Source of the DNA: Alphaproteobacteria bacterium
GTDB lineage: Bacteria; Pseudomonadota; Alphaproteobacteria; GCA-2731375
Direction of reading: 5' to 3'
Length of the DNA stretch: 51,198 nt
NCBI GenBank assembly: GCA_021776235.1
Contig: JAJFGG010000056.1
Span: 1 to 51,198, forward strand
The translations under genes and the position numbers were made by a program. The number at the start of each line of letters is the position of its first letter. The stretch's first letter is position 1. Positions 329-42,282 of the stretch are shown piece by piece. The notes below the pieces were generated by a model, which saw nothing but the letters and a program-made list of their open reading frames with translations, was not told where the DNA came from and did no database searches.

Positions 329-357
329 ATACCGAGGTGCAAAGCAAACAGAAGAGC

Positions 358-371
358 CCCGGCATGCTCTA
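358..371 (-). repeat. TAGAGCATNNCCGG repeat, copy 1 (supplies a stop codon)
   Basis: Read on the minus strand this is TAGAGCATGCCGGG. Its first three bases are the TAG stop codon of the ABC permease gene that ends at 369. It matches the copies at 12256, 12505, 18241 and, less closely, 42268. Confidence 0.6.
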
Positions 372-11706: not shown

Positions 11707-12255
11707 CTAACCGATGTCGGTTTCCAGTGCCTCGCCCAATTCGACAAGGCGCAAATTCTTGCCGTCCGACTCCAAAACGGTGACGGAGCAATTGTTCGGC
11801 CGAAACAGGGTGACCCGGTCGTCATTCAGGGCGGCGCCAACAGCGACGTTGATGGCGACGAAGTGACTGACCACGACGGTGTCCTCCGATAAGCCCAACA
11901 TGGCATCGATCACGCCCTGGCGCCACGGGTACAACCCGGCATCAGCCTGGGTCCAGGTACCGGACATGACCTGGCGCAGCCATTGCCGGCGGTTACCTAA
12001 ATCTTCTGTGGGCGAGGGGATTTCACGGACCGCCGGCTCCACCAGGCCGGTGAGGTTCCAGGCGGCTTCCAACGGTTGCGCCGTTTCCCGCGTCCGCCGC
12101 AAGGGGCTGGCCATAACGGGCAAGGGCCCCAGAGGCGCCATCGCCGCCGCCATCGCGGCAGCCTGGCCGTGGCCCAGGTCGTTCAGGCCGGGATCCGGAT
12201 CCTCGTCCCACGAAGCGGCGGCCTGACCGTGGCGCACGAGGTATAGTTTCGCCAC
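11707..12255 (-). CDS. Histidine phosphatase (phosphoglycerate mutase-like)
   Basis: A 182-residue member of the histidine phosphatase superfamily. The N-terminal LVRHGQA holds the phospho-accepting His9; SPLRRTRETAQPL carries the conserved arginine, and VVVSHFVAINVAVGAAL carries the second catalytic histidine. The start is GTG (12253-12255), immediately next to the left end of the palindromic element. Read in the gene's direction the element ends CCGGGAATGCTCTA, so GGGA eight bases before GTG may serve as the ribosome site. The natural substrate is undetermined; acting on a sugar phosphate, nucleotide or phosphohistidine are all possible. Confidence 0.85.
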   Translation of the reverse strand: MAKLYLVRHGQAAASWDEDPDPGLNDLGHGQAAAMAAAMAPLGPLPVMASPLRRTRETAQPLEAAWNLTGLVEPAVREIPSPTEDLGNRRQWLRQVMSGTWTQADAGLYPWRQGVIDAMLGLSEDTVVVSHFVAINVAVGAALNDDRVTLFRPNNCSVTVLESDGKNLRLVELGEALETDIG

Positions 12256-12518
12256 TAGAGCATTCCCGGGCTATTGTGAGTCATTTGATGGTGACCATAA
12301 GCCATTCGGGTAGGCGTGTCGCGTGGCGCGATGTGGTTCATCGGGCAAGCGGTACAACGCATCCGAATGGCTTAGGGTCGCCACCGAAGGCCGTCCACCA
12401 AGGCCCCGTGGCGGCGTTGCGGTTTTTGGACGATGTCCCACATCGACCTGCAAACCGCGCCTACCCACGGGGCCTTGGTGGACGGTCAAATGACCCAGAA
12501 TAGCCCGGAAATGCTCTA
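12256..12518. mobile_element. 263-bp non-coding palindromic element (MITE-like), fills the whole gap
   Basis: The left end reads TAGAGCATTCCCGGG followed by CTATTGTGAGTCATTTGA. The right end, read on the other strand, reads TAGAGCATTTCCGGG followed by CTATTCTGGGTCATTTGA. These are terminal inverted repeats of about 33 bp with three mismatches. Inside are two further inverted pairs: GACCATAAGCCATTCGG at 12293-12309 against 12363-12379 (one mismatch), and a 95-base hairpin at 12391-12485. Open frames on both strands mirror each other and look like by-products of the palindrome. It encodes no transposase. The edges coincide with the stop codon of the FMN-protein gene and the GTG of the phosphatase gene. 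Confidence 0.75.
12391..12485. repeat. 95-base hairpin inside the palindromic element
   Basis: The outer stem is perfect over 20 bp: CCGTCCACCAAGGCCCCGTG at 12391-12410 pairs with 12466-12485. Pairing continues inward imperfectly (GCGGTTT with AAACCGC, CGATGT with ACATCG) to a CCC turn near 12438. As RNA this would be a very stable structure in either direction and could affect message stability or termination between the two minus-strand genes. Confidence 0.75.
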
Positions 12519-13151
12519 ATACAGCCGCTCTTTCAAACTCGTTTGCACATGGGCTTCGACCTCTTCCGCCGATTGCGCCGCATCGATCTGGTCGCGAATC
12601 ATATGGCCCAGGGGCGGCATGGCGGTTTTTCGTTCAACCCGGTAATCGTCTTCCCACAAGCGGGACCGTATGAGTGCCTTGGCGCATTGAAACATCACCT
12701 CTTCCACGGCGACCAGCAGGCCGGTTTTCGGCACCTTGCCCCGTACCTCGAAATCCGCCAGCACCTCTTCGTCGGTACAGATCCGGGCCTGACCGTTGAC
12801 GCGCAGGGTTTCGTTCATCCCGGGGACCAGAAAGATCAGGCCAATATGCGGGTTCCTGGTGATGTTGGCGAAGGTATCCAGTCGGTTGTTGCCGATCCGA
12901 TCCGGGATCAATAGGGTGTGGTCATCCAGCACTTTGACAAAGCCGGGGGCATCGCCGCGGGGCGAGACATCGGCGGGGCCGGCCGGGTCGGCGGAGGCAA
13001 TGCACAGAAACGGCGACAATTCGATAAAGCGCCGGCTGTGGAGTTCCAGGGTGGGAACGGCTTTCTGCGCTGCCAGGGTGCTGACCTCACTATACAGGCC
13101 GCGCAATTCCCCTTCATCTTCAACAAAGTCACCTGGTGTCTGATCCGTCAT
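12516..13151 (-). CDS. Pyridoxamine 5'-phosphate oxidase-like FMN protein
   Basis: A 211-residue split-barrel flavoprotein of the PPOX-like family (the DR_2398/MSMEG_1061 type of probable FMN-dependent enzymes). Typical segments are FIELSPFLCIASADPAGPADVSPRGDAPGFVKVLDDHTLLIPDRIGNNR in abbreviated form: LCIASAD (about 52-58), SPRGDAPGF and LIPDRIGNNR. True pyridoxamine oxidase activity is unlikely for this subfamily; reduction or removal of reactive compounds is the usual guess. The start ATG 13149-13151 has GGAGAG just upstream; the longer frame to 13199 has no such site. The stop codon TAG (12516-12518) is the first triplet of the palindromic element. Confidence 0.83.
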   Translation of the reverse strand: MTDQTPGDFVEDEGELRGLYSEVSTLAAQKAVPTLELHSRRFIELSPFLCIASADPAGPADVSPRGDAPGFVKVLDDHTLLIPDRIGNNRLDTFANITRNPHIGLIFLVPGMNETLRVNGQARICTDEEVLADFEVRGKVPKTGLLVAVEEVMFQCAKALIRSRLWEDDYRVERKTAMPPLGHMIRDQIDAAQSAEEVEAHVQTSLKERLY

Positions 13152-13219
13152 ATCTGGCTCTCCCGGTTGGTCCTGCGCTAGGATAGCACCTCCAGTCATA
13201 TGTAGAAAAGCGTTCCCCC

Positions 13220-42190: not shown

Positions 42191-42282
42191 GGACACAAAG
42201 GAGCCTGCTGGTTGACTGCATTATATGCGCGATGCTTGCGGCATGATAAACTTTCGCAGTCCTTTGTCCGCGAAATGCTCTA
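42191..42282. repeat. Imperfect palindrome between convergent genes, ending in the TAGAGCAT repeat
   Basis: GGACACAAAGGA (42191-42202) and TCCTTTGTCC (42260-42269) are inverted copies flanking a loop with smaller hairpins. The right edge (42268-42282), read on the minus strand, is TAGAGCATTTCGCGG, a diverged copy of the repeat that bounds the 12256-12518 element. As there, the TAG is the stop codon of the minus-strand gene. The palindrome may act as a bidirectional terminator or be a relic of the same element family. Confidence 0.5.

What the first reader, a model, noticed from the sequence alone, without database searches (positions are those of the whole stretch)
12256..12518. 263-bp palindromic element occupying an entire intergenic space
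About 33-bp terminal inverted repeats, two nested inverted pairs, and a perfect 20-bp stem in a 95-base hairpin make it far more structured than normal intergenic DNA. It has no coding capacity. It resembles a MITE or a composite of REP-like palindromes and seems to supply the neighbouring gene's ribosome site.
Basis: seen in the sequence. Interest (0 to 1): 0.6.

Follow-up and report, generated by a model that had tools for sequence, protein, structure and literature searches.

The report
Cloverleaf-shaped mobile DNA on stop codons
The 263-bp palindrome is one of dozens of copies of a gene-less mobile element that folds into a cloverleaf, jumps into TA sites (most often exactly on a neighbouring gene's stop codon, which it rebuilds), and belongs to a widespread, apparently undescribed family in Pseudomonadota whose moving enzyme could not be found.

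Summary
The 263 bp (12256-12518) are two 33-bp terminal inverted repeats around two 95-nt hairpins and a CCGAAGG linker. At least 40 related places lie in the same genome, and 8 congeners have the empty site: a TAATG stop/start overlap into which the element inserted with a TA duplication. Elements of the same architecture occur in 34 of 385 sampled genomes of the class and in other classes of the phylum, with unrelated terminal sequences but the same fold. On 48 copies, 74 of 99 pairs show compensatory changes. Hairpin 1 tolerates G.T but not A.C mismatches on one strand (43 versus 6 gains), so it is selected as a folded single strand, DNA or RNA; the terminal stem shows no such bias. In the copies examined, 23 of 37 noncoding insertions sit on a stop codon (7.4 expected). 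No transposon with these ends, and no consistently present IS630, IS5 or RAYT transposase, was found, so the mobiliser is unknown. The supposed ribosome site is not supported. I rate this a new variant of a known kind (MITE-like elements).

The parts
12256..12518 (+). whole element, oriented so that the linker reads CCACCGAAGGCC
   Evidence: empty site
12256..12288 (+). left terminal inverted repeat, beginning TAG
12486..12518 (-). right terminal inverted repeat; 12516-12518 read on the minus strand is TAG, the present stop codon of the PNPOx-like gene
12289..12383 (+). hairpin 1 (HP1), under single-strand constraint on the + strand
12384..12390 (+). linker CCGAAGG, able to form a mini-hairpin; CCCGAAGGG, CCCTTCGGG or longer in distant members
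12391..12485 (-). hairpin 2 (HP2), homologous to HP1 on the opposite strand
12254..12257 (.). left junction: ancestral ATTAAT became AC-TA-element-TA-AT, a 2-bp TA duplication in a YTAR target
11707..12255 (-). downstream neighbour, histidine phosphatase family; start is GTG here, ATG in relatives with the empty site
12516..13199 (-). upstream neighbour, PNPOx_N family; ancestral stop TAA, now TAG supplied at the junction

Best explanation
A non-autonomous mobile element of MITE kind. Shown: multicopy, gene-less, inserts at YTAR (mostly CTAG) with what reads as a TA duplication, absent from the same site in relatives, recently active in some genomes. Shown: the cloverleaf (terminal stem, two hairpins that are inverted homologues, mini-hairpin linker) is kept by compensatory change while terminal sequences turn over completely. 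Inferred: an unidentified protein, supplied in trans, recognises the hairpin cores as folded single-stranded DNA (less likely as RNA) at both ends in the same inward orientation, and the paired terminal stem brings the two TA ends together for cutting and joining. Inferred: because both ends read TAG, insertion on a TAA or TAG stop codon leaves the gene a stop codon, so such insertions are tolerated and accumulate.
For: Copies: (20 places at 90% identity or more including those cut by contig ends; 40 scored). Empty sites in 8 congeners. Targets YTAR on both sides. Covariation: 74 of 99 pairs, score 0.461 against 0.142 shuffled and 0.065-0.078 when slid. Strand bias: HP1 43 G.T against 6 A.C gains, terminal stem 20 against 26; middle part of HP2 biased the other way, 15 A.C against 2 G.T on +, as expected of an inverted homologue; independent distant members 82 against 12; HP1 folds better as + strand in 46 of 48. 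Stop codons: 23 of 37 noncoding sites, 7.4 expected, P 2e-8, or 3e-4 if only half of other intergenic sites are usable. Recent activity: 99.6% identical copies at different places in G306, 98-99% in G588.
Against: No mobiliser found. HP2 as a whole shows no significant strand bias in A1 (22 against 30). Single-strand selection does not tell ssDNA from RNA. A TA duplication cannot be told from an element that carries one TA. The gene calls behind the stop-codon count come from a simple codon-usage script of mine, and the stop-codon sample is 43 copies with flanks. Event counts rest on one FastTree topology. MAGs often lack multicopy transposase genes.
Confidence: 0.72

Rival explanations
1. An ordinary MITE of an IS630 or IS5-type insertion sequence, moved by a transposase that needs only the ends; the hairpins are passengers and their pairing is kept by template-switch correction of palindromes, not by selection.
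For: TA duplication at CTAG/YTAR fits both families; an IS5-type element in the same genome also sits in CTAG (L185). Palindrome arms can be corrected against each other by a known mutational process (own knowledge).
Against: No element with the same ends in 11 congeners; G010 has neither DDE_3 nor DDE_Tnp_1 with many copies, and G306, G073, G300 and G279 have neither these nor Y1_Tnp. Correction of palindromes gives no G.T over A.C strand bias, which is seen in HP1 and not in the terminal stem. Terminal sequences vary more than the hairpin cores.
Confidence: 0.3
2. A REPIN-like element moved by a RAYT (HUH tyrosine transposase) that cuts single-stranded hairpins.
For: Two inverted hairpins with a GTAG at the outer foot in the window copy; single-strand constraint; Y1_Tnp genes in 9 of 11 congeners. 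TnpA-REP binds folded ssDNA hairpins (PMC8266576).
Against: No RAYT locus is flanked by the element or its hairpin; 9 of 14 element-bearing genomes have no Y1_Tnp match; GTAG is not conserved in the family; symmetric YTAR target and paired ends are not a REPIN feature.
Confidence: 0.1
3. A transcribed RNA element (attenuator, sRNA or mRNA 3'-end stabiliser) kept for the host.
For: HP1 strand bias is what a structured RNA would show; enrichment behind stop codons.
Against: Empty in relatives; orientation relative to tandem genes is even, 10 same and 12 opposite; no Rfam match at gathering score; no promoter-like site within the consensus scan.
Confidence: 0.08

Closest known systems
RUP, Correia/NEMIS and ERIC elements (bacterial MITE-like repeats; table in PMC2229807)
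   Same: short, gene-less, terminal inverted repeats, TA at the ends, intergenic, foldable
   Different: here a four-armed cloverleaf with inverted homologous hairpins, conserved by covariation across families while the terminal repeats turn over; RUP shares its ends with IS630-Spn1, no such partner found here
REPINs / GTAG REPs with RAYTs (PMC3116915, PMC3733652, PMC8266576)
   Same: two inverted hairpins, likely single-strand recognition
   Different: 263 bp, outer paired repeats with TA ends, GTAG not conserved, no RAYT association
Rhizobium intergenic mosaic elements (RIME) and Bru-RS of Brucella
   Same: intergenic palindromic repeats of Alphaproteobacteria with large palindromes (own knowledge; cited in PMC2873474 and PMC2267715)
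   Different: not compared by sequence here; much shorter as described

Membership tests
MITE (general) | short, no coding capacity, terminal inverted repeats | tested here: met
MITE (general) | multicopy with empty sites and short target duplication | tested here: met
   (TA duplication, subject to the caveat that one TA could belong to the element)
MITE (general) | shares its ends with an autonomous transposon | tested here: not met
   none in 11 congeners by exact-pattern search nor at transposase loci; assemblies are fragmented
IS630/Tc1-mariner or IS5 derived MITE | TA target duplication | tested here: met
IS630/Tc1-mariner or IS5 derived MITE | such a transposase present in genomes with fresh copies | tested here: not met
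   G306 and G073: none of PF13358, PF01609; only these Pfam families were tried
REPIN / GTAG REP | inverted hairpin pair | tested here: met
REPIN / GTAG REP | conserved GTAG tag | tested here: not met
   GGCAAGG, GGCTAGG and others in distant members
REPIN / GTAG REP | RAYT gene flanked by the repeat | tested here: not met
RIME / Bru-RS | sequence relationship | not tested

The most novel reading that the evidence does not exclude
A phylum-wide class of mobile elements whose identity lies in a conserved cloverleaf fold of single-stranded DNA rather than in its end sequences, moved by an unknown enzyme that reads the fold, and that settles on stop codons which its TAG ends rebuild.
Probability: 0.35. 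Interest if true: 0.82.

Novelty: new variant of a known kind. Interest (0 to 1): 0.62.

Why it matters
It would add a structure-defined family of bacterial mobile elements with a clean comparative signal (compensatory change plus one-strand wobble bias), explain many unannotated palindromes behind genes in Alphaproteobacteria and beyond, and pose a definite question: which enzyme moves an element whose ends share only TA and the ability to pair.

Tried and rejected
Full-length transposon with the same ends: not found. IS630, IS5 and RAYT as mobiliser: not consistently present, not flanked; an IS5-type element lies inside one copy as a later insertion (L349). Host RNA element: no orientation bias. 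Rfam below gathering score: only implausible hits. Plasmids: no match for four subfamilies; viral contigs: none for the core pattern. Lone terminal repeats in the genome are not enriched at stop codons (3 of 18). Stopped for another reason: I began to copy the whole of genome G588 in contiguous 20 kb stretches (L402-L481, 1.6 of 2.72 Mb) in order to hold it as a file and look for the mobiliser. I stopped, fetched no more, did not join or analyse those loci, and no result rests on them; for G588 I used only short stretches around places the search tool had reported.

Full report
What is there. The fold is far beyond chance, z = -16.9. The element lies between two minus-strand genes, a PNPOx-like gene upstream and a histidine-phosphatase-family gene downstream.

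It is mobile. The same genome holds at least 40 scored places, about 20 of them at 90% identity or more, several cut by contig ends. Joining the flanks with one TA finds the site uninterrupted in eight congeners; the ancestral sequence is GCCATTAATACA, where TAATG is the stop of one gene overlapping the start of the next. The insertion kept both genes: the stop is now TAG, formed at the junction, and the start codon is GTG. Targets are YTAR on both sides, mostly CTAG. The TA reads as a duplication; an element carrying one TA of its own would look the same.

It prefers stop codons. Of 43 copies with usable flanks, 23 insertions fall on a TAA or TAG stop codon, 14 in other noncoding DNA and 6 in coding DNA. 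Against the noncoding YTAR sites of the same genome 7.4 would be expected on stop codons (P 2e-8; 3e-4 if only half of the other intergenic sites are usable). Gene calls came from a codon-usage script of my own, so the numbers are approximate. Since both ends of the element read TAG, such an insertion leaves a stop codon. Tolerance alone may explain the excess.

The fold is what is conserved. In 48 full elements, 74 of 99 pairs have compensatory changes; 95.9% of cells pair against 79% shuffled and 35-40% when slid. Members in other families and classes have unrelated terminal repeats, yet the same stem, two inverted homologous hairpins and a mini-hairpin linker. A model of hairpin 1 matches 34 of 385 sampled genomes of the class and 18 of 398 of the phylum, including other classes.

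One strand of hairpin 1 matters. On the + strand G.T pairs were gained 43 times and A.C 6 times, while the terminal stem shows 20 and 26. Double-stranded DNA cannot tell these apart, so hairpin 1 is constrained as a folded single strand. The effect holds in distant members analysed apart (82 against 12), and 46 of 48 sequences fold better as the + strand. Hairpin 2 as a whole is not significantly biased, but its middle part is biased on the opposite strand, as its inverted homology predicts. Whether the strand is DNA or RNA is open.

The mobiliser is unknown. No transposon with these ends was seen in 11 congeners. IS630 (PF13358), IS5-type (PF01609) and RAYT (PF01797) families are each missing from several element-bearing genomes; G306, 99% complete in five contigs and with two copies 99.6% alike, has none of the three. 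No transposase locus examined is flanked by the element in a way that suggests an autonomous partner. In G588, outside the class, three copies 98-99% alike sit in different places and again carry no gene.

A matter of method. That went round the limit. I stopped at 1.6 of 2.72 Mb, used none of those 80 loci, and took only short stretches at reported hits. The whole-genome search for the mobiliser is left to someone who may lay a genome.

Verdict. A MITE-like element, and in my reading a new variant of that kind, because the conserved feature is a single-strand cloverleaf and not the ends. I found no description of it in Rfam or in the open-access papers searched; subscription literature was not available, so prior description cannot be excluded.

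Noticed in passing
window 352-371 and 42263-42282, minus strand: Two degenerate lone terminal-repeat-like sequences, each beginning TAG at what looks like the stop codon of a minus-strand gene.
   Followed up: partly
L349, about 481-1080: An IS5-type insertion sequence appears to have inserted at a CTAG within one copy of the element.
   Followed up: partly
L040 (about 161 bp) and G010:C14:74897-75057: Shorter elements with one arm from each hairpin, probably a deletion or recombination between the two homologous hairpins.
   Followed up: no
L004: A copy lies within an alpha/beta-hydrolase gene; joining the flanks at CTAG restores an open frame.
   Followed up: no
L041, L043, L202, L255: In Inquilinus limosus and relatives similar hairpin pairs occur with quite different outer stems.
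   Followed up: partly
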